This document shows, in pieces, positions 1,153 to 57,164 of a stretch of 64,000 nt of DNA. The first letter of the stretch is position 1. Every line of letters starts with the position of its first letter. Source of the stretch: Ascidia mentula (taxonomy: Eukaryota; Chordata; Ascidiacea; Phlebobranchia; Ascidiidae); NCBI GenBank assembly GCA_947561715.1, contig OX387197.1, forward strand, positions 20,072,266-20,136,265. Direction: 5' to 3'. Both the position numbers and the translations under genes were made by a program. Below the pieces are notes generated by a model. That model had not been told where the DNA came from and ran no database searches. It saw only the letters and a list, made by a program, of their open reading frames with translations.

Positions 1153-4100
1153 TTCGAAGCGCTGAGTGCATTTGTGATCGGCAAACAGTGTCTGTGGTGC
1201 GGCGACCGCTGTCCCGGATTCGCCCTTCATCCCTGGAGGTGAGATTATGCGTATTACTCATACATAAAAGTCTCAAACTTTGGCCACATGAGACTGGCTG
1301 GTCCCGATCAAAGTTAATTTGCGGCCTTGAAACAATGAATGCGTCAAATCCGGATATAGAGTGGAGTCTGCGCTGTTGATAGATACAGGTTTCCTTTGAC
1401 GTCTGCAAAGCACATCATGAATGCACACTCGCGACTATATGGTTGTTTACATTTGAATCAATTCATTCGGTGCGTGCTGATTGCGTTGGGAAGTAACAAT
1501 GGCCGGGTGTGTGCGAACCCCAGCAAGCGTTAATATACGGCCCTGGAAGCGAAAGGGGTTGAGCTGTGGCGGTAATACTTCAGGCAACGGGATTTGAAAG
1601 GTGCCACAGAGCGTTACTCGCTGCGAGCAAATCATGTTTACCGACCGGCACGCCATAAACCTGACTGTTCACGGAGTCCCACTATTCAACATAAATTTTA
1701 CGGTGCGCGTTGTTGCTGGTCTGCTGTTACGGCACCTTTGCGTACTACGCATACGGACCACACTTCAGACTTGTTTTAAGCACAATGCTTGTTGAGCCAC
1801 ACTGTTGTAACCGGGAGTAAGACAATATTTACCTCGTGCGATGAATGAGCGAATAACATCCACGCTTTCAGGGGTGATTACTGTTTGCTTACGTCTGTCG
1901 AATGCGCGTCGCTATGACTACATGGACATACTCAGAATGGAGCATTTGACAGCTCCATGGCGCCATCAAGTGACGTTTGGTAGTGCAGATTGCACAAGAC
2001 TTTCAATTTTCCCGTGGTTGCAGGGGGAAAATTGTAAAAAGCTGAATTTTACCAGATGAATACCAACAAGTGTAGTTGCAAAAGTTGTATTTAAGTGTTG
2101 AACGATCATCATGAAAAACGTGTTGAAAACAGAAAAACAGAAGTTACTTTCATATACTCCTTTTGTATCCACCCCATGGTGGCCCCCTTGATGGCGACAG
2201 ATTATTTTGAACGCGACTGGTAATTTCATATTCACGCGTCTGCTCCGCGTCATCAATCTTTCTGGATCCATCGCATGTGTTTTTGCCCTCCTCGATCCAC
2301 AGGGAGAATTATTCCCGTCTCGTATTTGCGCACCCATCAATTACCGCACAGGCAGATAATGATTCTCGGTCTTGTTGTCGCTGATGAGTTTGTTTGCTGA
2401 TTTCTTTTGTCCATGTGGTGTGGAGGGTATGAATTTTAAGAATGTCTACTTTTGTTCATTCGGCGACAAATAAACGCCACTCGTCGGCGCCATGTTTTTT
2501 TTGGAAATCACGAAAATTTCATATAGCTTTTCTCTTTAATCGATTTGTTTGGTCGCTCCCAATCCGCACGACTCTTATATGACATGTTTTAAAAGTAATT
2601 AGGTGATTTTGCGACGAAAATACAAGCAATTGCTCGGCGATAGCATAATTATTATCTTTTTGGGGCGAAACGCACTTACGCGATTAAATCGTACGAAGTC
2701 ATCGCCACTCTTGGGTATGATGCATGTCCGCGAAACGTCATTCAATGTCACTAGCAGACCCGCCAATCAAAATCAGACCTTATACTCTCTGTGTGTCCGG
2801 ATATAACCTGCGGTTTAGGGGTCACCCACGGTCGCACAAAAAGGTCATTGTGACCACGACGTGCCGCAGAAAAGTTGCGGTTTGCTATGTACACTTGTCG
2901 CTCATCGAAAACAAATCTGAACTGAGCTGGGCGGCGTTAAGGTGCTTTAATGTTGCCGATTCTTACTGTTTAACATACATTGTTTTCGCGATCATTCGCA
3001 CGCGGGTAAACACCGCACTTAAACGTTTGCATGACAAAACGTCCGAGCGACGTCTAAGCTTGTCCTCGGAAAACATTTCGACTGTTAGTTTAACACACAG
3101 TTTGACATGACTTAGGTATTGGCGTGTACCGCGACGGGCAGTGGTCGTGTTTTACAAAACTGCCCTGACAATTGGCAGCTTATCGTGACGTGATTTAAAT
3201 GGGAACGCGAACCACACCCGGCAGTGCATACAGGTGTGGCAACTTTCAAACTTTGTCAAAGTTAACTTGTGATTGATTGTTGATCAAGGAACAAAATACA
3301 TTTGCACTACCAAATGCAAGGTATCATGGATTGTCTTTTTCGACCGATATAATTTGAAAAATGATAGTTTTTCTTCAAATAAATGTACACAAAGCGGGGA
3401 TCCTATGTTAAGTCGTTATGTGCAAATGTATTTTAATCAGTATAACAAACCGCACATTGTATGCTATGTTATAAGCTTATTTCGAAACACAATTACCATT
3501 GAACCTTAATGCAAAACAGAAACGTTTGCCAATGAGGTTTAAAAAATTATTAAGTTCGACATCCATATACAAAGATAAGAAATCCCTCTAAGCGTATCTT
3601 TCAACCACATAAACCTGTTGGCCAAATGATATTACTTCCGATCGGTAATAAGTTACTTATTGCGCGCTTTGTTGTTTCCACTTCAAGAGAGACCAAAAGC
3701 GCTAGGGCAGTCGAGTCAATTTGCTTTGCAATTACAAGGAGCGAGCCGGGAAGATCCGAGCGCAAAACTAGAACTCACCAACCCTCCAATTACAATTGCG
3801 ATGAGTGCAGAACGCGTTTGCAGCCAGAACTGTGAGCGCTGTGTATTTCGGGCTGTTTCGCAATTTAATCGTGTGGTTAAAAGTTAAAACCTCTTCCTGT
3901 GTTTTGCTGTAAATATACGTTAATTTGAATTCCTGAAACGGTCTAGCTTAGTTCGTGTTTCAGAGGTCAAGGTGAGGGCAGTAACAAAGCTCGGAAAAGC
4001 GATGGTACAGTCGGAATGTGTTTTGTGGTCCTAATGCAACGCAAGGTGTAAACAAACAGGCTTGTGTATGTGCTTTGACAAAGACGGGACCAAAGAAACC

Positions 4101-7100
4101 AAAGAATTTGTTAGTTTTACGGTTACGGATCACAAACGATTGATATGCTGATGCATTTGTGACCTTCCTATAATTTTTTTACGTTTTGGCCTTCAACTTT
4201 TACTTAGCATGCGAATGGTTTATCAAAATAAATAATTTAGTTATTTTTTCCAAAAACGCAAAAGGTTGCCTATTTTTCCCGGAGGCAACAGGAAATAATC
4301 CCCACCAACATTATACGGAGATGAATATGCGCCCAAAATGAAATAGCCACCGTCGCTCGTTTTTAATCCACGAACAACAGAACATCCATGGGAAAGCTCA
4401 GGTTGCTTTTGTAACAAATATAACAACCCTAATTCTGCCTTCACCAGATCAGGCGCGGTAATTTTCGGCGGCGTATATATTCTTTCCATCCTTTAGCACT
4501 AAGACGTCACGTCTGACCTTTCTGGGAAAAGGAAGCGAATGTTTGTGGAACGTCGGCAGCTATCATCGTCACTTACGTTGTTTCCATTGCTTTTTGTGCT
4601 CGAGTTCAAATGCGAGCGTGTTGTGTTTGGTGTGTGATCGCGTTAAAAAGTTAACGGAACCTGACGTCCATTACTTTGTCGTCAACTCGTTTGTGGCATT
4701 GAGGGTGCGGAAAATGAGTCAATATGTACGTGGCAAATTTGTCTTTTTTTCCGGTATTCCGTCAATCCGCGATCCTGACAACAGGTTGATTCTGTATGGC
4801 TGTATGTCTTTCAGTTGTGCCCCTGTACTCGTTGTGATTGACCACAGTGGAAGAAATGACTTTGAAAAATGGAAGATTGGATTTGAAGGCAAAATATTGT
4901 TTTTTTTTCTGAGGAAACGTACGCACGTTGTTTCGTAATGAAATTCCCATTTCAGATGACGACGACAAAGGAAAATATAGTGGAATGAGGTTATTTATTT
5001 TACATGGACCTAAATACCTTGAAAATTGAAAATAATGTTTGTCACAGACTCGAAATTAGCCGAATTTGTTATTGAAATAGGTTTTCTGAAATTACTTTGC
5101 CGTTCAGATAAAATACGAGAACACAGCAAATAACAGGTTGTTTCAGATTTTCCAAACTCTTCATACAGTTAGTTCTGAAACGTGTACGGTTACATACAAA
5201 ATCCCGGGCACCCACTCGAGTCAAGGGCCTTACGACGAGGGACAAGTGCCATCAGCAAAAACACTAATGTAGGGGATTGTGTTGGCGCAGGTGCTTATAC
5301 TTTCTCTACAATGCCGCCGCCTCAAGTGACATTGTGTTCAAACGGGGAAAGTGTTCGTTTCGTTTAGTGTAAATCTGTCTGTGAATATTTCCCAGTTTTT
5401 TGGAAGAAACAAATTGGTGCAAATAATTTATAATTTTCGACCGTGTTTCGACATTTTTCTTCTTTTTACCTCCATTTAGAAAAGTTAAAGAGTAGTTTCT
5501 GCTATCAAACTACGACTATAGTAATGGGGTTAAGGTAGTAAACAGCTTCACGCAGTCGAAGCTTTTGAAAGCTCTTGAGAGTTTAATCTGTTTGAGTGGA
5601 TCCAACAACTTTCAGAGACTTTCTTGGCCGGAGTGTCTTGTTTGGTAGAAAGAAAACGTTTGTGCATCCAATAATAATAATAATAGATGTCATATATGGC
5701 GATGTGGCTGTTTTGAGGTGTGATAATGTTGATTACAGGCCGTTTGATGGTGGAGCTTATCTGTAAAACCTTTCGTGTTGATAAAAGCAAACCAGTTCTG
5801 TCTCCTAGTGGGCGCCATGGAGCTGCATAAATGTAAGAGGCTCTGCGTGGACCAGTTGTCCAAATTCGCTTCCCGTATGTCAAATTAAATAAATGAATTA
5901 AAATAAAGTTTCAGGTTTGGGGGGCTATCAAAATATTTCGGGTGTTGTATTCTGTATCAAATACGTATCATACACTATATATATATATATACCTACAATG
6001 GGTCAATGTTACTCATGTTACGAGATGAATGTATTTTAATTGTTGCGCACAGCTATTTTTTTGTTGAAATCATGTTTCAACTTCATATGTCAGTCGAAAC
6101 CTCAATACAAACAGCCAGCGGAAAGCAGAAAATAACGCCAATCGTGTTCAAGTTGTCTTGCCAACCGATTGCCAGTCGTAAAAACTAAATTTATTCGTGT
6201 GACAAACCATCCAGTCTGATGTAATGGTTGACTATTTCTGAATGCCCTGTTAAAAAAAGGGGGAACGGAATGACGTCTTAGGCCGCCCGGGCGCAGCCCC
6301 GCGATTTGCAACGTCACCGGATCTTATCTGGCCGACAATAAATACTGGTTCGATGTGAACTTTTACAACAACATAGAATCGCGCTGTTGCTACAGTAAAA
6401 ATACAGCGAACGGATAATACCCGGACCCCGATAATGATTAACCCAATTTTACGATGCCGTGTCTCTGGTGCAATTCTCACACAGACCTGCGTTTTCCGTC
6501 CCGAAACGAAGTGAAAGACACGTTTTGCCAAGGCAGCAGAACAGGAACGCGTTGGGTTCGACAGTTTTACAGCCTCGTCTAAAGTTCATTGACACGACCG
6601 TTTCAAACCAAAGCCTAAATGGGACAGGTACTAAATCAAGATGCGGTATCCTTTGTCCTTGAACTTGCTTTCTTTCCTCTGGTCTTACACGCTATTCAAT
6701 GATCGGCGCTGAACAAATGCCACAAATCATGATGTTTGTTCATTTTCCCCCTTTTTTTAATACCACTGTTTTTCTTGCAACACAATGTCATAATACGAAT
6801 GTTATGTCAAAAACTTTACTTAGGATACTGTTTTTTCGCGATGTTGTGGTACAGAAATAGAAGTAGCCATCGGGTGAGCATAACAATAAATACCTGTGTT
6901 CACGAAATCAGTTGTGAAATAACTCCTTAATTTTGGGTTGTTTATATGAGTAAATAATCACAACCAAGTTGCTTCCTCTATTCTTCGGCGAATCCCCGTC
7001 TTGTGCTCCTCCCCATCAGCAGGATAACAAACCGTCCTTCCTGCTGAACAAAATCTTCGCGCTTTACTGACGTAACCGATGTTAAGATGCTGCTTATCGC

Positions 7101-10100
7101 GTTAATCGCAGCTTCTAGCACGATAATTCAGTGATTACCGGTCATTAGAGTTATCTTCAGAAGACTTTCCCTTGGCACAATAGAAGCATTGGTTGATGCA
7201 AACAGTATGGGACAATATTAACGTACTGGTAAGAGATTTAATATCTCCACACTTTATGTCAATTTTAACGACTAAATTTAAAATTGCTTTTATATCTGGT
7301 TTATTTCGGATTTGACAATGCAATGCTCAAAATTCACCATCAAAGCATTCTTTCCGATTTTATATTTATCATTCTCCCACTGTCCGTGCTGTCATAAAAT
7401 CGAAAGGCGGATCTGTGCGATACTGTGTAAAATTTCAACGGAATGGCGCTGCAGATTTTATTAACATACTTTCGCAAGCTTTCAAGTCAGTTGCGACGTG
7501 GGCTGTAGCGCAGGTAGCAGAAACTTTAACTGCGCGTTAACGCAGCAGGTATTTTTTCTACCTTTGGTCGGCCGTATCACATATCACAACCGATACGGTC
7601 GCGGCGCCCCTGTCTGCGAGGCACGATCGGGTCTATGATGAATGGTGCGAGTCAGAATTATCTCATTTGCCCAGCACACTGTATAACATAATCCTTTAAC
7701 AAGGGCACCCGTCAGGCTTGGACCCTTATCGGCCGCACGCGCGAACAATGAAGGCTTTATATGGGGTTTCTGTCCGCATCAGGACTGGCAATATTGTCAG
7801 GGTACCATGGTCGCTTTCACTAATCGTGTCGTTGTAATCATGATATCTGTATATTTTGATTTTCTTTGTATGAACGCGATCGTTGCTCGTATCAGTATTA
7901 GCCCAGTCATTGTTTCGCCATAAACCGAAAACATGCCAAATGATATCAATCTGAAGAGAATTCGCGGACAAGTTCGCGATCACCGATACGAACCCAGCAG
8001 GTTTATTGGATCTGAATATGCATGAGTTATGGATTCGCTTTGTTGTCGAACATAATAATACGTAACTAAATTATCGAAAAATTATCGGCCATAGGCTGAC
8101 TGAGGGCTTCGTTTGGGGAATTTATTATCGACAGCAAATTATCGCATTCTGTTTATGTCAAAATTGCCGATCACTTTGCTATCCACTTCACGTTAGTCAT
8201 TTTAGATTGCGAATTAATATTTCATTGCGCAGACGATCGTTGCTATCCAAATTCAGCCACTTACGTCTCTCATTACGCTGTCTCGGCTATGCCTACGCTC
8301 TTCTGCGAGTAATTTGGATTCGCTAAGTGTAACCGGGCAATTGATGCGATAATGCGTCAAAAACAGCGGTTTAAGGTATCGAGGACCTGGACAATCAATG
8401 TCAATGTGGAAAGCGACCATAAAAGAAAATGTTGAAATCCTGTTGGCAAAAATGCCTTTCAAACTAAACTTTACAATACGGGTAGCAGAATATGGCAGAA
8501 GTTTCGAAGTAAAAATTTCCACTGACAAGTGTTATGCGGCTGTGGTCAATGTCAACGTTATCAGTTAGCCTCGCAAGACATGCGATGACTTCACATTCCC
8601 GTTTTGGCATTTCACGCGAATGGGCTTCCCACCCTTACATACAGGCGTTGTTTAGAGCTTATTGGAATTGCGACCCAATGGCGCGTTCCCTTGGCTGCTT
8701 TCATGTCCATTGTTGTCGCAGGTGCGAATCCCGAGCTTCGGGTGGAAATTAAACGATCAAACTTGTTATTTTCGCGCCGGCTTTTGAGCGGCCAGCCATA
8801 ATATTTTATTTACAAGTAATATATTTTATTTACAATTCAGGGGGTGGGAAAACGAAAAGGTCAATCCCTGTGATGTTATTAACACCGGCTCACTCAACTT
8901 TGATGAATATTTAATGGGATTTGCGTTGTTGGTTTTGGATTCTGTCACTTTAATTAACGAAATTTCAAGCCAATAAGTAATTTCTTGTGCCTAAAATACG
9001 ACAAGGAAACAGCAATACGGGTTCTCATTTAATAAAGCCTGAAATCTTGCAGTGAAGGTTGCTTGGCGGTTGTGGTTTACCCGCAGGATGAAGTTGAACC
9101 CAAACAGCGCCACGGCCCCCATAAGCACTCAGCAATACGTGTACCAACACGCGTCTCGTTACGCCTTCCTCGCTGCGCCAACGTTTGATTGCGATTGACC
9201 GCCGACGGAGCTGGCCTTTCATCCGACAAAATATGGAGTAAAATGCGACAAAACGTGCCAATTTATCGTGAGCGAACGGTTGATCAAAGGTTGACGCCCC
9301 TAATACACCCGCATGGACTTTCATTTCACCATTCGATGTCTTGTTACGATGTTGGTGGGAAATGTATGTGCAAAATAAGTGTTCACTGCGACGTCGCAAA
9401 AAACAATACTCGTCACGGCAACCAGTATTAGTGTTAAAGAACTGAAAATATATGTAATTTTTGTTGACGACTGGGAAAATTCAAATGTTTTATTGTAAAG
9501 AGTTTGTGAGAATACGGTCCTGATGCAAACAGTTTAAAATCCGACCATACAGCATTGAAGCTTTACGAGTATTCCCATTTGAATCCACTCACAGCAACTC
9601 ATTAAGGCCATTTGTATCGGAAACAATGAAGCCCTTTAGTGTATATGTATGGCTAAGTGGTTTTCACCTTCAACCTATGTTCTGTTCCCCCTGCTGTTTT
9701 GTTTGCATGTCGCTAACGACTACAAGTGTGTTGTAAGTTTGGTAGCACCTGTTGTCATAGCACCACGCGCAATCGCGTTTTGCGTTTGCCGCTACATCCA
9801 ACATTTTTTGCCATTTCACCACTACTTTTTGTTAACCTCAAGGTCCGGGGAAATTTTTTCGTGCGCTGCGAACATGCGGCGAGCATCAATAAAATAAAAC
9901 AACTCGTGTTCTGAACATTCCTTACGGGCCGTTTTGCACTTGATCGCTAACGACCTGATCGTTGATCATAGCATCTCAACACCGGCGGGTGACGTCCGAT
10001 TAATTGGCCTCCGCTCGGGGTCGCTCACCTCAGCTTCCGTTGGTTGAGCAGAGCAAGATCGATATACTGGTCCATTCCTGCTCTTGTTTACAAGCTCCTG

Positions 10101-13100
10101 AACTTTTATGTTGACGTATGCGCAAGTGGCCTTGCGGCGACGTCCTGTATGGGTGCTTCGAGGCGACACCGCGCCGACAAAAGTAAGCGACAACACGTCA
10201 ACTCTGCATCGCCTTTCTTGCTCGTAAATAAACCAACAAAAATGTCCAGTCGCCTTTATTGGCGGCTCGCTTCAGATGGAGATCTTCCACGTTGCCTTAT
10301 ATGTTTGTGGCTGGGCCGTTCTTGTTTGTTAAGGTCGAGACAGATGAGAATTGAGATTCCGTCCCACAGTTTGTTGTGCGCTTAATGGAGGAAGATTTTT
10401 ATCGGCTACGCTTTGCGCACGCCACTCTATTTTTAGTCAAGACTTCGAAGATAACATAAGCTGGGCCGGTTGGCGTTTTGAAGATTTTCAACTGTTTTGC
10501 GTGCCGTCCTGTGTCGGCGTCGCAGGGCAGTCGTACCGTAATTTAAGTTTTCGCTTCGCACCTATATCAAACATCCAGAAACTTGGACGCAGTAGTTTAC
10601 CCAACTGCTTAGAAGTCTAAACTTCAGTCGTTTCGCGACAAAGCACCGTGTGGCTTGTTTGCTCAAGCGCACCGCGTTTCAACGGGCACCTGCTCCATCC
10701 CGACTGTGCAGGATCACCAATCAGCACTGCATTGTTGCCCTCACGTGCGACCGACGCGTCACAAAGATGGATGGCCGCGTTCGAGCTTTCGCGAGTCAAT
10801 CAAAACTTTCGCGATTTGCTCGCGAAAGCGCGTCGGCTGTTTGCGCTGCGTCTTGGCCCACTAATCGCGTCAAAGGCTCGACCATCCGCGACCAACTTTC
10901 CTCGGCCCAGTTTCTTGGAGCAGTCACGTGATCACACGTCGCCCGTTCCCCCGGCGTCCCACAGAAAGCGTTAAGTCCGAGACCAGAGCCGTTATTATTC
11001 TTTTGTTGTGAAACGAGCCAGAAAACATAAAGCTAGTTTAAGACCGAGGTTGTTGCAGGTTCACTGTAAAAGATTTAAATGTCAGTTTTATGTTGTGTTT
11101 GCGAGTGTTAAGGTTTCCAACTATGCGATCTGATATAAACTAGTACCAGGTTGGATTAATGCGTTTTAAATGTCGAAGTTAACAGAAAGGCAGCTGTTGT
11201 TTGGCGAATAAGTTTTCAGCAATTCACAATGAATAATTTGCTTATGTAGTACAGTCAAGAGCTGATAGTCACTTCACAAAGTAATGCGCGCCAATTGCGT
11301 TTTGTAGTGGCCAATCCTATCAGTAGATGATTCCCGCTAAAACAAGGGGAAACTACCTACTGTTCTGTTTAGTGTTGAATAAGTCTTTTGAAAGACGCCC
11401 GATCAGTGGTGAAAGGAGCAGCAGGACGCGTCGTTTTGTTCGTTCGGTTGTTGTCAAAGCATAAATCGTGGAGTGTATACGCAAGTCTGCGAGGCGCCCG
11501 CATGGTGCCGGAAGTTAATAATGGGGCGAAAACGCTTTGACACTGCTTACCTTTATATTCTGCGTGGTCCCTTGGTAAACTGATCGCAAGCAGCTGCCTC
11601 CAGATCCGGGCTTTATTCGGATAATCAACGTAGCGATAAGCAGCAGAGCGCGGTCTCAATACATTAGCATCGGGTTTCAGCGCCGATCGGCACAATGGTC
11701 GCCCGGCAAAATCGTTGTTAACACCGGGCGGCTACAAGCGTCAGTTAGTTTTCTGTCGCCCTGTTCTAAACATACGAATTGTAACCGAATACTTTTTCTT
11801 GCTAACCAGTTGCCAATCAACGTATCACGATTGTCGTCGGGCGCCCACCCTGTTGCAATTGTTCGGTTCGTAATTTGATAGTTCGCATAGCTGTGAGCAA
11901 TGGTACTCTCTCGATCTTCGTCATTTTGGTAAAACCTGGTGAAGTGAATTTGTGCGGATTTTGGAAACGCTCATTTTCAGCCGTACTGGTTGGTTGTGCC
12001 ACAATGGACGGATGTTTTCTTTTCGCTACATCTTTTTGTGTTGGGCTTTGGGTCGAATGGATTTGCTTTCCTCTGTTTAGTTAAAATCCCGCAATTCAAA
12101 CGTTTAACAAAGGCGAGGAGTTCGGTACGTACCTTTGTGACAATGCACCCGATGGTTGGGGCAGGCGCCGTCCACACACACTGCGGCGTCATCGCTTCCC
12201 TCTAATTTTCCTTGCACTAATGGCCTGCGCGTGTGGTCCGCAAACAGGCGCCACCACGTTGTAAACATGAGGCCTGGCATCTTGACAAGGATCTAAATTT
12301 CATTACCGGAGCGGTCGGTGGTGTTTGGAAGGACGCGGGCACGTGGCACAAATAACCGGCCGCCGGGCCCATGCGTACCGTCCTGGCACTCACCTAGGCA
12401 CTTTAGAAGGCCAAGAAAAGCAACCGTCGGGTCTTTACGTATGCAACAGGGCGTAATAGGCACCAACTTATCAGTGACAGCCTCTCCTCCATGCATGCGC
12501 GCTATTGAATCAAATGGAGATCCATGAGCGAGTCGGACAGGTTGATTCGACGACATGAGAGGCCAAACTCGGACTCATAACGTCATCCTCATGCGCGTGC
12601 CTCGGCTGCATTTGGAGATAGCGGGAAGATAAGATAAGCGCCTCATTAGCACCGACCCCTCGCCAAGTTGAAGGTCGGTGGAATTCCGGGGAGATTTGTC
12701 ATTGCCCAAAAGGCGCTTATCAAGCTTCGAGCCAAGTATTAATTCGTATACTTACTTATCACAACAAAAAAGATCATTGTGTCTTAACCACCAGCCCCTA
12801 AAACATCGATGGTGCGAAGTAAATGCGTTTGCTTTATTAAATATTACTTTTGTTACTTTTTGCGTTCTGTTCATCGCATTTTGGTGTGGATTTTTTGAAA
12901 TTGCCGAGTCCTTATAATTGCTTTGAAATTTCACCGGTCTGCAAGCGCATATATCATTGATTAGACACCGCTGGTAATGGTATGCGCAAGTATGGTAGGA
13001 AAAAGACGAGTCTTTTGTCTTTGACATTGTGTAATACCTCTCTTCCAGGAGTTAAGTCGAGTCCAGTTGATTGCACAAAATACGTCGGCAAACATTTAGG

Positions 13101-16100: not shown

Positions 16101-19100
16101 TCGGGTCGCGTGTCATAACAGTTCTGTTACGAAAATCTTATGCTGCCGTTTCCTATCACCTGTCAACGCCAGCTCAAAGTTTGTCCGCGCGTAATCTCTT
16201 CAATGACAGACAAATGACGTGTAACCGACCACTTCGTGACGCCATCCTCCGACACTATTTCACCCCAGTTTTCTCCTGTGTGGACCTGGATTTTTTAATG
16301 GGGACGTAAACATATAACCTTTCATTGAACAATACGTTAACACCTTGAGGGTTGCCATTTGTTCGCGATATTTTCGGGACTGTCCCAATGTTTCAACACC
16401 AGAATCAAGAGATTAATACAGACTTCTCCAAGGTGTCCAAACGTGTAACTATACAACCCGGTAATATTGATTACTTGAACACGCATCAAGCCTCGCCACC
16501 AATCGCTTCAAAAACAGTAATTAGTTTCAATCGCGTGCGTCGCTGTAATGCAGGTGGCTCCCGGTCACATCGTGCCACAATTAGCAATGTTGGAGTTTCC
16601 GCTGGAACACCCGCGTTGCACGTTTGGTCGAATATTTCGCCGAATCGGCTGTACAAGATCGCAGCCGCGATGACTGTTCGAGGTCCACTTCTCCGTCACC
16701 CGAAACCCCCAATTGACCAGTCACCGACCGTGTGTAATTGGGACCGCCCATGCGGTGGCTGTTCTCGCTTGTTTTAGTTGGCGTGTCCAGTTTATCCTTC
16801 CAGCGAAATCGCCATGCTAGTGTATTTCCTCCAACTTTTTCATGGCCTCACGATTATCCCGTTCTTAGGCGATTTCAAGCGAAACGGAAATCCTGCTCCT
16901 GCGTATCTGGGTCATTTTGTTTGGCGAATTATGGGCACTACATGGGTTGGCGCGGCACCTGTGTATGTTTACGGATTACTGCATCTTTACCACACACAGA
17001 CTGACGCGATGTATGTGCGCCGTCAAGTTCTCAGGTTTATCTTCAAACCAAAACACGTGTGCATCACATCGGGTCAAGATTGCGTTGTGTAGCCTTCGAC
17101 TTTAACCAACCCCGTTAGTGTTGCCGCCGGATTGCGGTGGAGGTTATGCGATAGACATGTCAGGGCATTTGCCGTTTTAGAATAATATCGACATGCGTCG
17201 TTTGTCAGCGACCAAATCCACCTTCATTTTTTACAAGTTTTGACCGTCTTATCGCACTACACCAATAATGACCTTCTTTGTGCGCTATTTATAATAAGTG
17301 AGGCCGAAGTTCACGTTGTCCCGGTTACACTAGCGCGCAATGCATGTAAGAGGATTCAAAGTTTTAACCATGCCATAGGCCGGATGCTTAACACAACTTA
17401 GCTTTTCACGCAATTCACCACCAATCCACAAAACCTGTGTTGATATCGATCGGTAAAGGTCAGGTCAGGCGGTCACATGGGCGAATAAATTTATAGTGAT
17501 CCGGGCTTTTCATAATGCCGGGCGATAGCCGTTAACAAGGGGCGCTGATTTTTATAGCCTTTTATGGCTTTTTTGTCCTCCGGGGTCGTGACACGCTGTT
17601 GTCCTTGGGGCGGTGTGCGGTTGGTGAGTTGATTGGAGCAAGGGAGGGAAGCGTTGCGAACTGGATTCACGCTCGTTCTGCGAACGGCCAGTTAATTAGT
17701 CGCTCTGTTCTCAAGACGCAGTGGGTTGAAATCAGGATGGTGGCGATTTAGAGATTTGCTTAGACGCTCTTTAAAGTTAATTGTGTACCTGGTATGTACG
17801 GTTGCAGTCGCAGTTGAAGTGTAGTGGTTAGTATACGTAAGCACACTATGTTGTTTGTTAAGTTTAAAGAGCGCAGACGGAAAAATGATAAAACTGAATG
17901 TTTTTAGCTTGAAAGTAGCAATGGTATTTGCAGCATGGCATTGTATCGAATTCCATATTACATTGTTTTTTGGATTGTCAATAAGAAGAAATTGCTCACA
18001 TGTACAAATTGCGTATTAACAGGTTAATGTATATCGAGAACAGACGATGCTGACAGACCATATCTTGTTTCCGAAAGATAAGCTTTTAAACGTAACGCAT
18101 CCATGCCCTTCAGTGATCCAGGGATGTCCGGAGATTTTTGCCGAATTGCGAAACGACGCGATCTGTTCCTTCGGCGCTTGCTCGTAAACGGTGTCGAGGG
18201 CGTTGTTCGCTATTTGCGCGCGACTGCTGTGTTCGTCTACAATTGTCGGCTCGAAGTTTTACTGCCTTGCGGAAAGTTCACTGGAGTGGGTCATTTCCAC
18301 GTGTGACCTTTTGTTCACCACTCCTAGGTGTCCAATCGGCTGTCCGCGCTTCTAATTCACCCACGCAATTAATGCAAGTTCAAAACGCTCGCTTTGTGAC
18401 TGATACGTGATGGCTGCGATATTTTAGAAGAGCTTTGTAGTTTATTGTCATATTTTTAGCATCTCGTTAATATTCTATGGCGAGGTTGCATCGTCACGTT
18501 GTTCTTAATGGACACGGCAAAATAAGTCACATTGCGCAAACGATAATAATGCAGTGGCATGTGCATTTGGTCGTTAGCACAACTGAACGACCTTAGCACG
18601 GAGTTTAAAATGCTGATTTAACTCACCCTTGTGCTATTTGTGGCCGCACGAACATCGTCTAACGAACATTATTGTCCTCGATATAGTCATTCACCTGCAA
18701 CGCAGCGATTTATTTGCATTCACGCGGTGACTGTTGCAGGAAAGGCTTCTGCGTTATGTTGTTATCCAGATCGGGTTTTTCACTCAATCTTTGTAACTGC
18801 GAGCCTCCTGTGTCGCAGAGGCGTCGTTTCTCATCTCAGCAAAGTTCAGGTTACATATTTTGTGGCTCGAGGTTTGGCAGAAGCGCTCGCGAATCTTCAG
18901 CCCTTTAAAAGTGCGCGTTCGTATAAGCCTACTGATGGAATCTCAATTGGCAAATCCTTCGCGTCACGTTCAGTGGTTTGTCGCAATGGCGACCGTAATG
19001 AGCGGAACTCTAGGGCAGTCCGACTTCGTAATTTCCAAAGGTTGTTTACCTGAATAAGGGCATTTTCCAGCCCAGAACGGATGCAATTTCCCGGGCGTGT

Positions 19101-22100
19101 ATACTAGAATTGTTTTGCGGGTGTAGATTTGGTGATAAGAGCTGTCAGGTAAATTCGGACAAAAGCTTACATTCCCTCCTTGCCTCCGTTTAGCGATACC
19201 TTGTTAACTGCGCGCATTCCGTTGTACTTGCTGTCAATGGCGCGTGAAATCTTGCAGGTGACATCGCGAACCTGGGGCAAGTCGGTGAGCGACAGGTCTC
19301 AATTAATGCCTCGTAGCACTGGATCTCCTTCCATTTCGGGGATTTGCGTGTTTGAGTACCGTCTCTCGACCGCCCGGTGTTCCACCGCGAGCACTCCCCT
19401 TCCTATAAGTTTGTGCAGGGTCGTGTTTGTATTTAGCTCTCGTTATTTTCGTTTCCCTCGCTCCCGGATTCGCCGGGCGCGAAGTTGACAAAACAGCGAC
19501 TCGCGGTGATTGAAGTGCGAACTGGAGGTTTAAAAGCCAATGGGGGGAAATGGTTCTGTGTGGTTTTTCCGGGGCTTGAGACCGATTGTGAGGACCAACA
19601 TTCCAAATTGCCGAAAGGGAACTTGAACATGCCTGCACGCCTCATCGAATATCAAGCTGCGATTCGATACTACTCCTATTTGCCCGGAAATTGTAGACAT
19701 ATCTTAGATGGCGGCGAAAATCATTTTCCCACGTTTGTCTTCTTTGTGCGCTCGAACATCTGTTCCCCTCACCCACAACGTTACTCATTCTCATTGTAAC
19801 CACAAACGCGATCCGTTTCTACCATAATGTCGCAATTCAAGCAACGTCAAGTCTTTTCATCGCAGTAACTTATTCGATGTTTCCATGTTTGAGTCATGAC
19901 TAACTCTTCAGTGAACGTGACATCATTCAACGAGAGGTGAAACAAAACTAACACGGTAGACCTCAAAGCATTCATACACAGGAGTCGCTTGTGGCTGTTG
20001 TTTTTGTACGTTATGGACGGTGGTCGTCGCACTGTGCCTCGATTAATGTCACCAGCTTGTATTTACACGCTTTTGTGCGGCCCAAGTTGTAAGTCCAAGC
20101 GGTCGTCGCTTTTCCTACGACAAAAGATTTCGGTGTTGACGGGCCGTCAACCACCGTTGTGACGTCACTGCCGTCGTTTGTCAAGCGGACCGCCGGCGTT
20201 TGAAGCGAAATGTTATTTAGTGTTTGTCGTAGTTTTCCGACATTGCTCCGACGCGGGTCAAAGTACCGCCATTGGCTAGCTTGTGGACACAGCGTCTTCA
20301 GCAATAGCGCCCGGTGTAACAGCGGCCTGCATGGCATCGGAAAGTGAATCAACAGCGCCTAAGCCTTGTGATTTATTTGCGCAGACAATTTGCGCAGGCG
20401 ATATGAAAGGGAACGCCTCGCGTGCAAGCGCTTGCGCACACAGCTTTCTCGGGGCTTCGGCGTGTTTGTTGCCGCCCGTATCTATAGTTGCCGACTGCAG
20501 TCAAATCAACAACTAAGAAAGGTACCGGTCAGTCGTCTTCTGTAAGGACACCGTTTGCCCCTATGTTTGCGAGCGACATGTGTATCTCCAGTAAAATACA
20601 TTTTCGTAACATTCCTATTCAGATTCCAGTTGGTAGTCAGTAAATGTAGCGACCCTTGTTGCGCTTTATACCCCGAAGTTATTTTTTACGCCCGGTCGTT
20701 TTGATTTGCGCCGAGTTGTGAATATTAAATACTGATTTTCTTTCATGACTGAATTTACACGGGTTCCATCATCCATGTTAGGCTGCAAATATATTCTTTG
20801 TCCCGACGATAACTATTCGACCTACCCGATTTGTTACTTGGACTTTGACGGAACTAACGCTTGTCTAACGCATACTTTTACAGAACTAACAATTTTGTCA
20901 AGGTAAACCAAAATCAAATAATTTAACTTCCTGAAATTCAAAGTTGTAACAGCGCACTGCTGCTCTATTTACAAAGGATAGAAATGTATTCGTTCAGCGT
21001 TTGCATGAGTTTCGGTAGCAATAGAAATTTAGTAGACCAAGCACATGCAATCCCTTTGGAAAGTTTTTGACCTCAGTGGTGGACCTTTGCACCATACGCA
21101 CTTGATGAGATTTGCTAAGAAACTTAAAATAGCAATTCATCGGAGCGAATTTATCGGGTTGTTGACGGGTGCCGATCGTTAATTCCAACCGGTCGGTACA
21201 AAGTTTTACGAGTGGGAAGATTTGGCGCGCTATCAACGGCGGGGTTGGCGACCGACGTAGCCCACTTAATGACTCTGGTTTTTCACTCGTAAACACGCAA
21301 GGTTTCCAGTTTGTCCTCTGGCAGACCTCGTCTCGTGTGTACAAGGTCATGGGCGGCATGGCTGTGGCATTTACAGCATCTTGTGTGTCCAACATCTTTA
21401 GTATGCTGTTGGGGCAAGTTCAAGTTAAAGTGATTTGAACTCAAAAACATAGTTACGATTGCGGCGTTTGTCGTCATCTAATGTTGCTAGATTCGTGTGG
21501 TCAGACCGACACCACTTCATACAACTTTACGTCTCGTCATACAAACCGTAATGTGCGAATCAAACCGTCCTAAATCACGACCGATGCGCATCGCCACATC
21601 AAAGCGACATGTCTTTTGATGCGCCATTTAATTACGCAAAGCGATCTCCCGCGTTCTCCTCTTCTGCCTGGGGTTAGATCACTGCGCCATCTGCGCTGTT
21701 CCTCTTAGATAAACAAATTGGCGAGGACGCGTTGTTGGGTCGCGTCGCTTCTTCGCCGGTGCGACAAGCGTCTCCAAAAATGAAGAATTGCCCGATCACA
21801 ATCGCCAGATTCTATCGCGCCGCTGTAAAAGCAAACTGCGCAGACGATTCCCACGCCGTGATGCCCGTTACAAACCTTTCTGAGATCTTTTCGGAGCCTG
21901 AAGTGGGAATTAGTCAGGCTCGTTTAGGGATGAACGGTTGTTTCGGAATAAACACCCGTCTATGTTCGGAAGTGTGGCGCGAATTCATTTTTCGTGCCAT
22001 GTTGGTTATGATCCATAAAAACTCCATACGAGAGAATGTAAGAAAAAGGACCATCAGTCAAGGGAGGAGAGAGAGGGCAGTTCTTCGCATGGCGAGCTTA

Positions 22101-25100
22101 TTGTTGCAGTTTCCACGATTTTACCTTGGTAAACTTGCCTGGAGCGACGCCACAGTTAGAGAGATGGACAGCTGCAATCGCCGGAACAGTGTATTGTGGG
22201 TACGGGTTTGTGCTAAACGTGCACCCCAACCACTAGCTTCAGTGATGTTTATGCATTGTTTGGTGTATCGTAGTTGCAGTATTTAAATTATCGGTCACAG
22301 CTGAAAACGCGCTGTTTCAAAACGGCAAACGCATATAAACGAAAATACAATAAGGAGGCCCAAATTTATTAACTTAGGAGTACGTTTATGCAGTAAAACT
22401 TGTGCTTGACGAGACCCAGCTACAGCAAAACAGTCACAAGGCTTCTCAGATTCACTATTGTGGCAGTTCACACAATGCCATTGTGACGCTGCAATTCGGT
22501 TTATATTGGCCTGGTGACAAGTCGGAACTGGGGAACAATGGCATATGCGAAATAAACTGCCTTCCAGCTGTCCTTAGAGTGTTGGTAAGTGGGTCGGGCG
22601 CGAGAATGGGATGCGGACGTGTTGAGATTAAACCGCCGGCAAATTGGTATGCGCGGGCGTTTCCAAGCAAGATTATTGCTGCAAAAGAGCAAACTTATTG
22701 CTTGCACCTTTGCGTCAGCATATTTATCACCAGTTTAGATGTAGCCGCTGCCTGCAAGACAGACATGTTTATGGTGCGGCACCGTTTAACGATTGACAGG
22801 TGTATGATGCTGCGTGAAATTGCTGCTGGTTGCATTTGTGGCTTGTCGGCAATCTGTGCGGAAATTGACTTCAGCGTATGTTAGGTCGATCATGATTTGA
22901 CAAATCACCGTGTCGTTATGACTATTTACAAATTGAGGTGCCTATTTCCTCGAAAAACAAAAATACAGACGCTTGTATACATTTGTGGATTTTTTACAAA
23001 CAAAACGAATACAAGTGTCACCGACGCATTCGAAGAAGCTGGCGTTGTTAACTCTCCGTCCAATCTACGAAAGAAGCTTAAAGGTTATTTCTCAGTCAAC
23101 ACCCAATCCGATTTGCTCATTTCTCGGTGTCAGCGCAAATGCGCATTTTTATTGCAATTCCAAATTAAACCGCACTCCAATAATTGTATTATCAACAAGA
23201 GCCAACGTGTCTGGAAGTGAAAGGTTCAAGGTCCGCATGTGTGCGAGCACGTTTTGAAGTTTAAGGGAGTTTATTTATATTATGCCTACCGTCGGATAGA
23301 TTCGCTTAGCAATACGCCAGACGATTTTTGGTTCAAGCCGCGAGTCAAATTAATTTCTCGCGTTTAATCGAGCCAATCCAAACAGTGCAAATAACACTCT
23401 GGAAGGGTCAGCGGCCAATCAGTGTGGGATCGCGAGAATTTCCCAGGTAAAATTAATCTCTCTGATAAATGTGGATGCTCACGTTGCGGCGCATAATATT
23501 TCGTTGGAAGTTACCACATCCGATTTGAACTTTTCCGTTTTGATGGGATCAAATTTTTTGTACTTTGCACTGTTGTTCTGTTTTAATCTTACCGCATATA
23601 TAAGAAGTTGTTGGCTGATTGTAAAAGATTTGTGGGAGAGGACGGGTTCACGTGCCGCTAATTATAATTTTGGAAGCCCTTTTCGTGTTTAGGAAATCTC
23701 GAGAAAAACAGCGGCGCGCCACCACCAAATCTTAAAATACGCTTATCTCACTACTTAACGCGAATATCGCCAGCATCACTATGCCCTTACATGAATTATG
23801 GTGAATCACCGAGGGCAAAAATTTTTGTCACAACCACCTTCTCCCAACCGAGTGCTCTACGTTTGGAATGCTTTCCGTCTTGTTAGGCATGCCAACGTCG
23901 CGGACACAACGTTTATTGCGTGTTTGGCCAGGCGTGACGTCAAACGCGGGCCTGCGTTGCCCAGCGACTTTGTTTCGTTTACTCTATGTTGTTTTACTGT
24001 GTTCCAGGCCTTGTTACTATGGCGCACATTTTGGGATACCGTAAATGTTTGAGTTATGAATAGCAAGCGATGTGTATAAAAATGTTGTAACTTTGATAAG
24101 CTAGCGTTGATGAGTGGCGGAATCCGGAATGTCCCAACGAAATATAAAAATATGTGAATTTGGAACGCGGGCGTTAATGTACTTCGGCCTCCCAGCGCTA
24201 TGTTTGTTTACGCGTTGTCGGCGCATCGTGGGAACGCGCGGGGTCTTCGCTCACTTCTTAACATACACAGTTAATTCCCGGCTTTCCTGGGCGCTCCAAC
24301 GGGACGAGCGAAGGTGCGACGGGAAGGGAAAGGGCGAGGAATCCATTGGCGTGTCTCCTTGGCACTACGCTTATAATGTCGGCTTGTATGTTTACATGTG
24401 GTCGTACACAAACCTTGATCGGATCGCTACTGTATTTTTGCGTATGACCGTTTACCCAGAACACGTCACCCCCTGAGGTCTAAATTACGGCAAGTGACGT
24501 AAGCGATGATGCCCTTTGAGATCCAACGGCGCGTATCGCGACCTTGGTGGGATTCGACAGCGTGCAAACACGGCGCTCCTTCATGGGCTTTGATATGCGA
24601 TATTCAGCAGCACCTGTAAATTAGAATTTCGTACTTAGGTGTCAATTGTTTGTGAATGCACAGAATCGTACGACTTCCGGTGTTGCCCCAAACCCAGACA
24701 TTTTTTTTGCATATGTACCTGTAGGCCTTGATTTGTTTCAGTCTAACAACCTGTTACCACAATGTTGTGTTAATCGTAACAACCTGTCATCTTCACGTAA
24801 GTTACTGCGTGTATCCACGGCGTATTCCATGCGAACCATAAAAAGACGAGTGAGCTTGCCAAAGTTTCAAAACCAAAGTAACGCATGTGTTATTTTAGGC
24901 CGCGTTTCACCAGATTTTCCCAGCGGGGTTCCGACTTCAATTTTCGCCGTGACTGATGGCCGTCTTAGCGCGTTCTGTGTTTTCGTTGGCACAACCTGGT
25001 ATAGTGAAACGGGTGTACGCGAGGCCGCAGCGCACCTGCCGATGTTAGTCAGTGCCGCTGCGCAACAACGGCAAACGTGTTTGAGTGCTTGAAAGGTCTC

Positions 25101-28100
25101 CACCCCCAAAGCGTTGACTGACTTTAATAAAAACAAATGCCCGCACATTGGCGCCGAACGTAAACAAGGGCAGGGCGGTAACGCTTTGTGGGTTTCGGGC
25201 AAGAAATACTTACACACTCTGACGCCTTGTGATGGGGTGTTGTGCGTCACCCATCAGAAGTGACACGGGTGAAATAAGTGCACTCCCTTATTCCTTTTTC
25301 GGGGCAAGTTCGTATCAGCGTATGCAACAACTGCCCTTGTGAAATCGTGTTGTGATGTTAAAAATTGTGTTGACAAGTGGGCGTACCGTCGGTTCTTCCA
25401 CCTTCCCTGTGATAGACGTGAGTGTGTATTAATAACAAATGCTGCTTTGACAACCCATTTTATGACCACCACATTTTGAACATTCTTCGCCTTCGGCGTG
25501 ATACTGTGTCCTAGACTTGCGACAAACACCGCCGCATGCAAATTGCCACACCGAGCAAATACAGACATCGCTGTGCACGCCTGGTCACTAACTGAGCCGC
25601 GAACTTTCCCATACGGATCGGAAGCGCTGAGCGGGATGCCACTCACCAAGCGTTATCGGTGCGTCTCCATCAGCGCCATTGTTTGTATACCTTGACAATT
25701 ATGCGCGATACATTGTTGCTAGTTTGCGGCGCGTGAGAATTGGGTCCCGACAGTGGCAGACTTTCTCGAACTTTTGCGGTTCTTGGGTTGGCTAGCCCAT
25801 TGTCAGCTAATGAGATCGAAATTCGGTGTCAGGGTGTTTCATTAGCATGCTGGTAATTCGCTGGCCAGTCTGGCGCGCCGTCTCAGTGTTTCCACGCAAA
25901 CGCGTGGTGCAAGTGCTTGGCTAATTGCTCAGCAAAGTGTGTACCCACATATACTGAAGCGTAAACAGTTATTCCCTGTCTAATTAGGCCTTATTACGCG
26001 GCCACAGAATTTGCATGATCCAATAATCGCAATTCACTTATATACATTACCGCGATAGTTTGTGCGTGGAGATTGTCTATTCCAGAACCATAGCCCGAGT
26101 CTTAAATTAATGGTTGTTTGGTTTCGAGCAGTCGAGCAAGTCAAGAGGGTTTCCATGTTCTCCGCATTGGGCCCACTCATAGCGTAGTTGGAAATCCTGT
26201 TGGATTATCGGACCGATCGCAATGCCTGTAGCCTGAAAGCGTGCTGCAGGGGGTCGAATCATTTCCACCTTTGAGTGTCGACACTGGTGCTTGCCGGTTT
26301 ACATTGTTTACTCGACATCATTTGTTATAACACTCTTGTCCCCTCGGACTCGGAGAGCTCAGGCTGCGAAGGTTTCCATTCGAATGGCGTTAATTCCACT
26401 TCGACTTTCGCCGGCTGCGAATGTGTTCGAATTTATTGGTCTCCTCACTTAGCGGCTTGCCACTCGTGCGCTGCGTTGGTCGCCATCGCGCGTCCACATC
26501 TGACGTTTACTTGATTTATGGCCCGAGAAATTTGTGCGCGAATCCGCAACTCTTGGTGCCTTGGTTTCCTTGCGCGCCCGTAAGCACAGCAGCAGCGCTT
26601 TTGCCATTCCGCCGCACAGCGAGAGGCGACCCAGAGCTTGGTCGACGAGAAAAACGCATCGCCGTCACTTATAAGGTGAAGCGCGCCTCTTCAGACAATT
26701 CAGTGTTTGTCGCCGTGCGCGGTCGTAAGGAGTGGAGTGCATGGGTGTAATACCGATGTTGCAAGGTGTATACATGTTGTGCAATTTTAAGAGTTGGGAT
26801 TATTTACGGACTGAATGTTACTGTGTAAATTAATTAGTAAGTTATATTGCAAGTACATCATCTCTGGACAGAAAACTGAGTAAGCGTCAGGACAGAAAGT
26901 CACAGTCTCTGCCGGCGTTCTGTTATCGAATCGCCGCAGGGAAGTGTAATCTCCCACCGAATCGTTACTTTCACTTTTATGATTTGCTTTCATTCAACAG
27001 AAGACTTTTAAAGTGTGTAGGCACGCAATGTGTAATAGCCTGTTTGAATCTATAGTAACCTGATGTGTCACATCTTACTGCTATAAGGCAAAAAAGGCTA
27101 CCACAACTTGTGCTACAGGAAATCGTGCGTTCACTGCAAGTGTTCGGTACCTCGACACATCGCTCACCCGCTGGAGTACGTTGACGACGTTGGCAGTGAA
27201 AGTGAAGTAAGCATGCCGGCTGCAACCGAGCCGAGTCGCAATCTGACGCAGATGAATAACTTAAATTCCATGGAAGCGGAGAAGTTGTCGCAGGTGGCTG
27301 CTCACCGGCCTACCGTCAACGACAACCGACGGAGGCGTCCACCCCGACGCCAACCCCGACATGTTCGCGGCTCTGACTCAGAAGAAGAGACCGTCGATAA
27401 CAGATCTACTTTGATGCAAGAGTACGCCTGGGTACCACCTGAGTTGACACCAGAGCAGGTACGTTATTTCAAAACTAATGCCCACGTCTGTTGCTGACCT
27501 AAAGTGAGCTTTTTGGTTGTGTGGTTTTACACTTAAGTTTGATAAAATAGATCCCGAGTGGCTTTGATGCTGGTAGAATTATCGGTGTAGATTTACTAAA
27601 CACACTGGCGCATTAAGATGGCGGCAATACGTTTGCTTCGTCGCAATACGTAAAGCGATACATAGAAGCGACCTTTGTTGGTTTTAGCTAAAATGCGTTT
27701 TTGTCCGCCATCAATCACGCCGGGTACCCAGGTCTTTCCAACCCATAGAACGGTCAATGGAGCACTGAAAGAGTCAAACATGTATGTGAGCGATAGCATC
27801 GCCCGACCCAAACGGCGATATTTACTTGGGGGAGCTTTTAACTTCTTGCCGGACTCGTAGCTGTTCGCCAGGCTGTCGTACCGCTGATGTCTGGATTAAG
27901 CGCCATGTAAGACCCTGCTCTGTTTGTCTTGGCCGAATACCGACTTAGAATTTGTGCCGCGCCGTTTGACATGCCAGAGGCCTTCGTTGCACGCCCGATG
28001 CAATGTTTTGAATGATTTTACTGGAGCATCCGAGCGATGTCAGGGTCGGTCGCCAAAACGTAATTTCAAACTTCATTAACCCTCGAAAAAGGTTCTTTTT

Positions 28101-45600: not shown

Positions 45601-47146
45601 CATACACTTTTCGTATCACTTTAAATTTGAGCTGTCGACATTTTTAGGGAAAACATGCATTTTCACGACACAAAAATCGTATACATATTTCGAATAAAGG
45701 TAGCGTTTAGTAATAATTTACATTTTACACAGACCATGCGAGTGTTGAGTGTTGTTTTTTCAAACCGTTGTTTTTCTGGAAACTTTTTTATCCAACAAAC
45801 CAATTTCATTAAACCCCCATCACTGACCATCGCAAAAGCTGATTTGTGAACAAAATCGAATCAAACATCAAATTGCGTAAAAAATTGACTTCATTAACCT
45901 GTCGTATTTTCGCAACAAGACCTTCCACGCAAGGCCCGAAATCGATCGACGGTCGGATAAGTAGGCGCATTTCTTTTATCTCGGCCTTTGGTATCTCGTT
46001 GACACATTAGTGCGCGGAAACGCATTGATTTTGTCACGGATTTGCTGATCTGTGTTTTTGCGTTAGATCGCGCCGCTCGATTGGCTGATGATGCACTCTG
46101 CGTCAAGTGTCACTCACACAAAACACAGACAACAAATTATTACCAATATTCCACAATAATGTCGGCTTTTCTTTGTTGTTTATCTGAAGTTCATCATTAC
46201 AACAATTACTAGCACATCTTCAGCATGACGAGTTGTCCATTGTTAAGCAAGCTCACTATATGGACTCATAATTTGAGGCGTTTAATCCTCTTGACACTTA
46301 ATATTTTTGCAGACTCGCCTACTTTAGGTGTACTTAACGAAAACTTGCGCCACCTGGTGGAGAACACGAAGTTGCGTGTGTTGAGTTTCGGGGAAATGCA
46401 GACCACCAACATCGGACTTGGGCCGCACATCAAGATCCATATCGTTCCGCCAGAATCGGCAGGTAACCCACAACCCCCATTAGTGTCAGAGTTTGAAATG
46501 ATTCAACTGTTTGTTATTAGGACTATTATAGCTTTGAGCCGTGTGTGTGCTTTGATTTTAAACAACTTATACATGCTGCAAAGTGTTGGAAAAATCAGTT
46601 TGCGTCATGCGCTATATCTGGTTGCCATGACATGGAGACGATGTTTGAAAGAGTGCGATGGTAGTCATCCTATTTCGGCACTACATAATAAGGTCTTTGT
46701 TATGGATTATGGGCGACTATTTCTTTAATGGTTGCCCTGTGACGCTAATCACTGCAGCAAGTTATTTGTGTTATTTTGCCTCAAAACCCCGAGAGACTTC
46801 AAATAAAGTCCATATATTTTGACTAAGTTTGTTTCTGCTTGTTTAGATGCCCAACATTTATTCAGTTTTTACCTCGTAGCGATGTGAAAATGTGTGTATT
46901 TCATAATTCTCAACCAACAACATTAAATATGCTTCAGATCCCGGCGTTGGAGAATTCATTCTTGCGGACACAAACCACCTGAACATATGCAAACCATCGA
47001 GCAGGCACAGTTCTTTGTATCAACAAACGGTCAAGTTCATTCGTTCGTGCGTGGCCCCGCCCCCAACCAGCGAAACGTCTGCCAGTGAATCAACACAGTC
47101 TCAACCTGACACCTCTCCTCTTAACAATAATCCGTTTGTCTGGTGA
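39690..47146 (+). CDS. SERAC1: SERAC1, serine active site containing protein 1
   Basis: SERAC1 acts at mitochondria-ER contacts in phosphatidylglycerol remodelling and cholesterol trafficking. Exons: 39690-39705, 40009-40156, 40304-40401, 40459-40608, 41289-41423, 41606-41718, 41791-41898, 42788-42894, 42952-43066, 43155-43246, 43759-43879, 44689-44855, 45031-45138, 45197-45306, 46313-46462, 46938-47146. The frame is continuous and gives 648 aa, against about 654 in human. One hydrophobic segment lies at about residues 7-22, then a helical (ARM-like) half with [10 protein letters not shown], then an alpha/beta hydrolase half: [12 protein letters not shown], the nucleophile Ser465 in VAHSMGGL (human has SHSMG at the same place) and NHLNICKP near the end. 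The start was chosen because MGEFKG supplies phase 1 for the next exon and sits in good initiation context; it has the least support of all exons. AATAAA is at 47183. Confidence 0.93.
43995..44045 (+). repeat. tRNA-like 3' half (possible SINE remnant)
   Basis: The sequence contains a perfect Pol III B-box, GGTTCAAATCC (44025-44035). It is flanked by a 5-bp T-stem (CTGGG/CCCGG) with a 7-base loop and followed by an acceptor-like GTGTGGTCA and an A-run. No matching 5' tRNA half or anticodon arm can be folded upstream, so it is not a working tRNA gene. It lies in a SERAC1 intron directly before the LINE fragment. Confidence 0.5.
44080..44345 (+). mobile_element. Decayed non-LTR retrotransposon (LINE) 3' end
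   Basis: Two overlapping frames together look like the C-terminus of a LINE ORF2. An upstream part reads [14 protein letters not shown] (from 44109). A part in another frame reads [19 protein letters not shown] followed by YNVAIFW (from about 44149), which matches the C-x2-C ... ET ... C ... FW finger of zf-RVT domains. A frameshift of the LINE frame lies between the two parts, and the His of the finger is replaced by Tyr, so the copy is dead. It is inserted in the SERAC1 intron 43880-44688 in sense orientation. The clade is not resolved. Confidence 0.6.

Positions 47147-54049: not shown

Positions 54050-57164
<3,115 letters not shown>

What the first reader, a model, noticed from the sequence alone, without database searches (positions are those of the whole stretch)
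1153..27458. A 25.9 kb intron splits the N-terminal Cys/His motif of Prickle
The exon 1153-1238 reads [16 protein letters not shown] and then Arg shared across the junction; the next exon, nearly 26 kb away, starts KSCVHCKC. Together they form the C-x2-C-x3-C-PGF-xx-H-x-W-R-x2-C-x2-C-x-C motif found ahead of PET domains in Prickle/Testin proteins. The exon was easy to miss because it is 86 nt long. An intron this large is far outside the usual size in compact ascidian genomes and is likely to hold regulatory DNA for a tightly patterned polarity gene. Skipping the small exon (86 nt) would shift the frame.
Basis: partly seen in the sequence, partly recalled or inferred. Interest (0 to 1): 0.7.

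Follow-up and report, generated by a model that had tools for sequence, protein, structure and literature searches.

The report
Sea-squirt Prickle gene's 26-kb intron
In a sea squirt, a small coding piece of the cell-polarity gene Prickle is separated from the next piece by an unusually long 26-kb stretch at a spot where its sister gene Testin has only 202 bases, so the splice position looks old and only the extra length, perhaps regulatory DNA, is special to Prickle.

Summary
Exon 1153-1238 (86 nt, phase 0 in, phase 2 out) encodes the first half of a Cys/His motif and 27119-27458 the second half; the GT-AG gap is 25,880 nt. The genome, very probably Ascidia mentula, gave one other match, in a Testin-like gene. 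That exon is also 86 nt, has the same phases and is split in the same Arg codon, but its intron is 202 nt. So the split is shared and only the length is peculiar to Prickle. The intron exceeds all 47 gaps measured in T-box and Wnt genes (median 413, maximum 7,583 nt; approximate). It shows no internal repeats, no Pfam-supported nested gene and no in-frame alternative coding first exon with a good donor. Skipping the exon gives 21 codons and a stop. The gene coincides with a 42-kb CpG-rich block, probably unmethylated. A regulatory role is plausible but untested; there are no RNA data, and the start exon was not found. Mostly ordinary biology.

The parts
1153..1238 (+). 86-nt coding exon of prickle: first half of the Cys/His motif (C-x2-C-x3-C-PGF-x2-H-x-W plus 2 nt of Arg); phase 0 start, phase 2 end
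   Evidence: paralogous 86-nt exon in the Testin-like gene
1239..27118 (+). 25,880-nt GT-AG intron, GC 0.45, CpG o/e 1.21, no internal repeats of 30 nt or more, no Pfam-supported nested gene
27119..27458 (+). 340-nt exon: KSCVHCKC half of the motif, linker, start of PET domain; in-frame ATGs at 27213, 27252, 27270, 27414
28763..28876 (+). PET-domain exon ([14 protein letters not shown]...PPHDDK), 114 nt
28877..34893 (+). second long intron, 6,017 nt, inside PET; absent at this place in the Testin-like paralog
34894..35031 (+). exon: end of PET, linker to LIM1
35101..35235 (+). LIM1 exon, first half
   Evidence: three LIM stretches in the spliced model
35303..35371 (+). LIM1 exon, second half
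35448..35634 (+). LIM2 exon
   Evidence: Pfam LIM on ORF 35376-35693
35714..35898 (+). LIM3 exon
   Evidence: Pfam LIM on ORF 35632-36189
35982..36975 (+). C-terminal region exon, edges chosen by eye at GT-AG sites; further 3' exons up to about 38,350 were only read by eye and not modelled

Best explanation
This is the 5' part of the only prickle gene that a PET-domain search found in the genome, very probably of the sea squirt Ascidia mentula. A small exon carries the first half of the Cys/His motif that precedes PET domains, and ordinary spliceosomal splicing joins it across a 25,880-nt intron to the exon with the second half. The phase-2 split inside the Arg codon most likely predates the Prickle/Testin duplication; it was kept in both genes while the intron is very long in Prickle alone. 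Shown by sequence: exons, splice signals, phases, shared position and exon length, lengths, no Pfam-supported nested gene. Inferred: that the two exons are joined in mRNA, that a further upstream exon carries the start codon, that the shared position is ancestral rather than gained twice, and that the intron is long because it holds cis-regulatory DNA, within a 42-kb CpG-rich, probably unmethylated block that coincides with the gene. My confidence figure is for gene structure and shared split; the regulatory step alone I put near 0.55.
For: Motif half unique in the window and completed in frame. Same exon length (86 nt), same start and end phase and same split codon in the Testin-like gene on C72, with introns of 25,880 and 202 nt. 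A second shared position (PEQ|VRF and EKL|ITE, phase 0) supports common gene structure. Spliced model scores PET at 114.4 bits over profile positions 10-102 and LIM in three stretches. Donors 6.48 here and 7.98 in Testin on a generic matrix typed from recall. Size against 47 gaps from T-box and Wnt genes: median 413, max 7,583, 0 of 47 as long. No direct or inverted repeats of 30 nt or more in the intron. 101 intron ORFs of 72 aa or more scanned: two families, one member each, E 3.8e-4 and 3.9e-4; the LIME1 match is under Pfam's cut-off, 20.4 against 27 bits. CpG score above the Ciona boundary of 0.721 from -2.9 to 39.5 kb.
Against: No transcript evidence. The start exon upstream of 1153 was not found: the best candidate in about 4.2 kb is no better than chance (58.5% of 200 Markov controls score as high). 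The regulatory reading rests on context only. The intron-size control is 47 gaps from conserved domains of two families, with edges taken from profile matches, so long 5' introns of those genes would be missed; two further control families did not complete. LIM1 boundary and the 6,017-nt intron are not shared with the paralog. The DUF7921 match (E 3.9e-4) was not traced: 39 of the 101 ORFs were rescanned singly without meeting it.
Confidence: 0.9

Rival explanations
1. The long intron contains a second promoter, so that the gene makes a long form with the Cys/His motif and a short form without it, starting at one of the in-frame ATGs of exon 27119-27458 (27213, 27252, 27270 or 27414) after a non-coding first exon. 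This can be true together with the best explanation.
For: Four in-frame ATGs lie in the exon. Fly pk-sple makes two isoforms with unique N-termini from one locus (PMC4764577, passages). From recall only: vertebrate Prickle1/2 start close to the PET domain without the motif, Prickle3 has it.
Against: No coding alternative first exon with a phase-2 donor scoring 5 or more in the intron: 0 of 472 candidates, best 4.56. This is weak evidence: 30 Markov controls gave 0 to 6, mean 1.57, and some donors used in this gene score far lower (0.02 to 2.4). Non-coding first exons are not excluded. No transcript data.
Confidence: 0.2
2. The intron is long for neutral reasons (growth tolerated in this lineage) and holds little regulatory DNA.
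For: No conservation could be tested. For huntingtin, orthologous intron sizes do not correlate between two Ciona species (PMC1636649, passages), so lengths can drift.
Against: No repeats inside the intron and no similarity at E 0.01 to 50 kb upstream, 25 kb of C72 or the window beyond 35 kb; GC and CpG are higher than in the flanks; genes upstream look closely packed (ORFs read by eye). Genome-wide copy number of the intron DNA was not obtained.
Confidence: 0.3
3. 1153-1238 belongs to another gene or is a decayed copy, and prickle starts near 27119.
For: Distance of 26 kb; start exon not found.
Against: Exact fit of codon split, phase, exon length and motif to the paralog; the only other genome match is in the Testin-like gene; the frame of exon 27119 runs open only from 27087 and has no ATG before 27213, so a normal start there would cut off the second motif half.
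Confidence: 0.03

Closest known systems
Testin-like gene of the same genome (G000 C72:221030-223765 as far as modelled; L014:31-2766)
   Same: 86-nt exon with the same motif half, same phases, same split Arg codon; PET domain; a second shared intron position
   Different: Intron 202 nt instead of 25,880; a start exon ([10 protein letters not shown]) lies 242 nt upstream; no intron at the place of Prickle's 6,017-nt one. The name Testin rests on recall of the human protein
TMA1/TMA2 motifs N-terminal of PET in TES-class LIM proteins (PMC3305314)
   Same: Conserved motifs that always lie N-terminal of PET; 18 of 28 Tes and Etes proteins have at least one; present in Monosiga (passages read)
   Different: The motif letters are in a supplementary table that was not read, so identity with this motif is likely but not checked
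Long 5' introns of developmental genes with enhancers
   Same: Large 5' intron in a patterned gene; Ciona enhancers often lie in the 5' flank or first intron (PMC3812116, passages)
   Different: No enhancer test here; this is the second or a later intron, since a further upstream exon is needed

Membership tests
Prickle (PET-LIM) proteins | PET domain | tested here: met
   PF06297 114.4 bits on the spliced model, cut-off 25; genome search finds the same exons
Prickle (PET-LIM) proteins | Three LIM domains after PET | tested here: met
   PF00412 86.7 bits in three stretches on the spliced model
Prickle (PET-LIM) proteins | C-terminal PKH region ending in a CAAX box | not tested
   An acidic [18 protein letters not shown] stretch is present near 38,000; the end of the protein was not modelled
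   Joined exons read it; the Testin-like paralog aligns without gap across the motif
Shared (ancestral) intron | Same codon and phase in the paralog | tested here: met
   AG|G in Prickle, AG|A in the Testin-like gene, both phase 2; no outgroup was available
Regulatory intron | Enhancer activity, open chromatin or conserved non-coding blocks | not testable with these tools
   No other tunicate genome or chromatin data held

The most novel reading that the evidence does not exclude
The intron grew only in Prickle because it became the main regulatory territory of the gene, including an internal promoter that yields a form without the Cys/His motif: one ascidian gene would then make, by promoter choice, the motif-bearing and motif-less forms that vertebrates split between paralogs (the vertebrate part is from recall).
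Probability: 0.15. Interest if true: 0.5.

Novelty: new member of a known kind. Interest (0 to 1): 0.33.

Why it matters
It gives a clean within-genome pair: what looks like the same old intron, 202 nt in a Testin-like gene and 25,880 nt in Prickle, in a compact chordate genome. That makes it a tidy place to ask whether long introns of polarity genes are kept for regulation. For annotation, it shows that the 86-nt exon must be included, since skipping it breaks the frame.

Tried and rejected
Start exon: ATG-to-donor stretches in phase 0 within about 4.2 kb upstream of 1153 (57 candidates) were scored; the best (617-670) is no better than Markov controls, so no start exon is claimed. Coding alternative first exons in the intron: 472 candidates, none with donor score 5 or more. 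Nested gene: 101 ORFs of 72 aa or more against Pfam gave two families, one member each, E 3.8e-4 and 3.9e-4. On rescanning 39 of the 101 singly, LIME1 fell on ORF 10621-10971 at 20.4 bits against a cut-off of 27; the DUF7921 match was not met again and stays untraced. Shorter ORFs were not scanned. RNA genes: no Rfam match at gathering score and no tRNA in the window; no tandem repeats. Solved structures: the matches to the first 180 aa are nuclear-receptor chains at E 0.3 to 5.3, taken as chance. Genome copy number of the intron DNA: not obtained; one query was over the length limit and one had too many candidates to be scored. Early exon tables had edges off by one to three bases (exon 7 also, where the phases of the last two exons are therefore wrong); one search is the corrected table. 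PF06638 and PF00063 intron controls did not complete.

Rows dropped before a count: of 38 T-box and 36 Wnt matches only neighbours on one contig and strand, in profile order, joined within -25 to +40 profile positions and 21 to 59,999 nt apart were kept, giving 23 and 24 gaps.

Full report
What is there. The window is G000:C1:20072266-20136265 in a genome of 195,842,439 bases and 79 contigs. Contig C1 is 27,920,005 nt and C72 is 19,661,885 nt. The Ascidia mentula genome note lists chromosome 1 as 27.92 Mb and chromosome 8 as 19.66 Mb (PMC11109543, passages), so the species is very probably Ascidia mentula.

The exon and the junction. Exon 1153-1238 is 86 nt, preceded by ttttgcag and followed by gtgagat, and reads [28 protein letters not shown] plus AG. 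The exon at 27119 supplies G, completing Arg, and reads KSCVHCKC. The intron is 25,880 nt, with no N in the window. The motif half occurs once in six frames of the window. The spliced model of eight exons scores PET at 114.4 bits and LIM in three stretches, as expected of a Prickle. The 86-nt exon holds no ATG, so a further upstream exon is needed. I did not find it: the best ATG-to-donor stretch in about 4.2 kb scores no better than controls (58.5% of 200 reach it). A zinc-knuckle ORF read by eye at C1:20068824-20069147 on the other strand suggests that the start lies within about 4 kb, but this is inference.

The paralog test. A search with the 29-aa exon gave 2 matches from 2 scored candidates: this exon and C72:221326-221388, near a PET match at C72:223124. 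The PET search gave 3 matches from 5 candidates, two of them exons of this gene. The C72 gene reads [54 protein letters not shown] and looks like Testin (name from recall of the human protein). Its motif exon is 86 nt, starts in phase 0, ends in phase 2 and is split in the same Arg codon, with a 202-nt intron. The two exons share 43 of 86 nt. A further position is shared at the start of PET (PEQ|VRF and EKL|ITE, introns 1,304 and 883 nt), and both genes have a boundary after CDE. Against full agreement, the boundary ahead of LIM1 is not at the same residue, and Prickle's 6,017-nt intron inside PET has no counterpart. So the split is shared, most simply because it is old; what differs is the length.

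How unusual is the length? Prickle's introns in order from 1239 are 25,880, 1,304, 6,017, 69, 67, 76, 79 and 83 nt. From T-box (38 matches) and Wnt (36 matches) I took 47 gaps between neighbouring exon matches: median 413, maximum 7,583, none as long as 25,880. These gaps are approximate and cover only conserved domains, so long 5' introns elsewhere in those genes would be missed; this weakens the statement 'far outside the usual size'. No published ascidian intron-size figure was found: a Ciona gene-model paper says only that size distributions were similar between two model sets, data not shown (PMC2760879, passages).

What is in the intron? No repeats of 30 nt or more, no similarity at E 0.01 to 50 kb upstream, 25 kb of C72 or the window beyond 35 kb, no Rfam or tRNA genes in the window. 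Among 101 ORFs of 72 aa or more, two families matched one member each near E 4e-4, about 0.04 expected for each by chance in 101 proteins; one is under its Pfam cut-off, the other was not traced in the 39 ORFs rescanned. No in-frame coding first exon with a donor score of 5 or more exists, but the controls range from 0 to 6, so this says little. Genome-wide copy number was not obtained. GC is 0.45 and CpG observed/expected 1.21, against 0.373 and 0.85 in 20 kb upstream and 0.379 and 0.80 at 39-64 kb. With the published Ciona boundary of 0.721 the CpG-rich run spans -2.9 to 39.5 kb, 42.4 kb (42.8 kb with 2-kb windows), ending close to both ends of the gene. The downstream edge is sharp (0.15 at 40-41 kb), the upstream edge mild (0.63-0.76). 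In Ciona, unmethylated tracts average 6.8 kb with SD 9.6 kb (PMC2957685, passages).

Function. Koch 2012 named two motifs, TMA1 and TMA2, that lie N-terminal of PET in TES-class proteins and occur in Monosiga (PMC3305314, passages; author name from recall). I did not read the motif letters. Six Cys and one His suggest zinc binding (inference). Skipping the exon gives 21 codons and a stop in the next exon, so skipping would remove the protein unless translation restarts at a later ATG. Ci-prickle is listed among early-onset genes controlled by Ci-Bra, and Ciona enhancers often lie in the 5' flank or first intron (PMC3812116, passages). This makes a regulatory intron plausible, no more.

Print. 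Five searches showed 10 of 10, 10 of 22, 12 of 539, 12 of 59 and 8 of 239 papers; by title and start of abstract none of those shown is about this intron in an ascidian prickle gene. Papers further down were not seen, and the 2005 ascidian prickle paper is not held. PMC6337844 (passages) reports shared intron positions among human, fly and Hydra Prickle-like genes and Limpet. It is therefore not claimed that the shared split is unpublished.

On rereading the calls I corrected the Testin-like coordinates, the words on the two weak Pfam matches, the strength of the first-exon control and the statement on the literature, and added.

Verdict. Observation confirmed; interpretation partly supported. 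Ordinary gene structure with one unusual length.

Noticed in passing
window -2.9 kb (L006) to 39.5 kb: GC- and CpG-rich block of 42.4 kb that coincides with the prickle gene; sharp drop downstream (CpG o/e 0.15 at 40-41 kb), milder upstream; probably an unmethylated tract, much longer than the Ciona average.
   Followed up: partly
28877-34893: A second long Prickle intron (6,017 nt) inside the PET domain, absent at that place in the Testin-like paralog.
   Followed up: partly
53001-64000: CpG-poor tract (o/e 0.22 to 0.71 per kb) holding a leucine-rich-repeat ORF at 61438-63132 (+).
   Followed up: no
50330-51124 (-) and 49329-49700 (+): SET-domain ORF and a pyridoxal-phosphate enzyme (PALP) ORF downstream of prickle; the latter reads by eye like the end of a serine racemase-like gene from about 47,600.
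   Followed up: no
40230-46728 (+): ORFs that read by eye like a SERAC1-like hydrolase gene; the two that were scanned (40230-40637, 44530-44859) gave no Pfam match.
   Followed up: no
G000 C67:34375-44074: T-box gene with a gap of 7,583 nt between its first two profile matches, the longest of the 47 control gaps.
   Followed up: no
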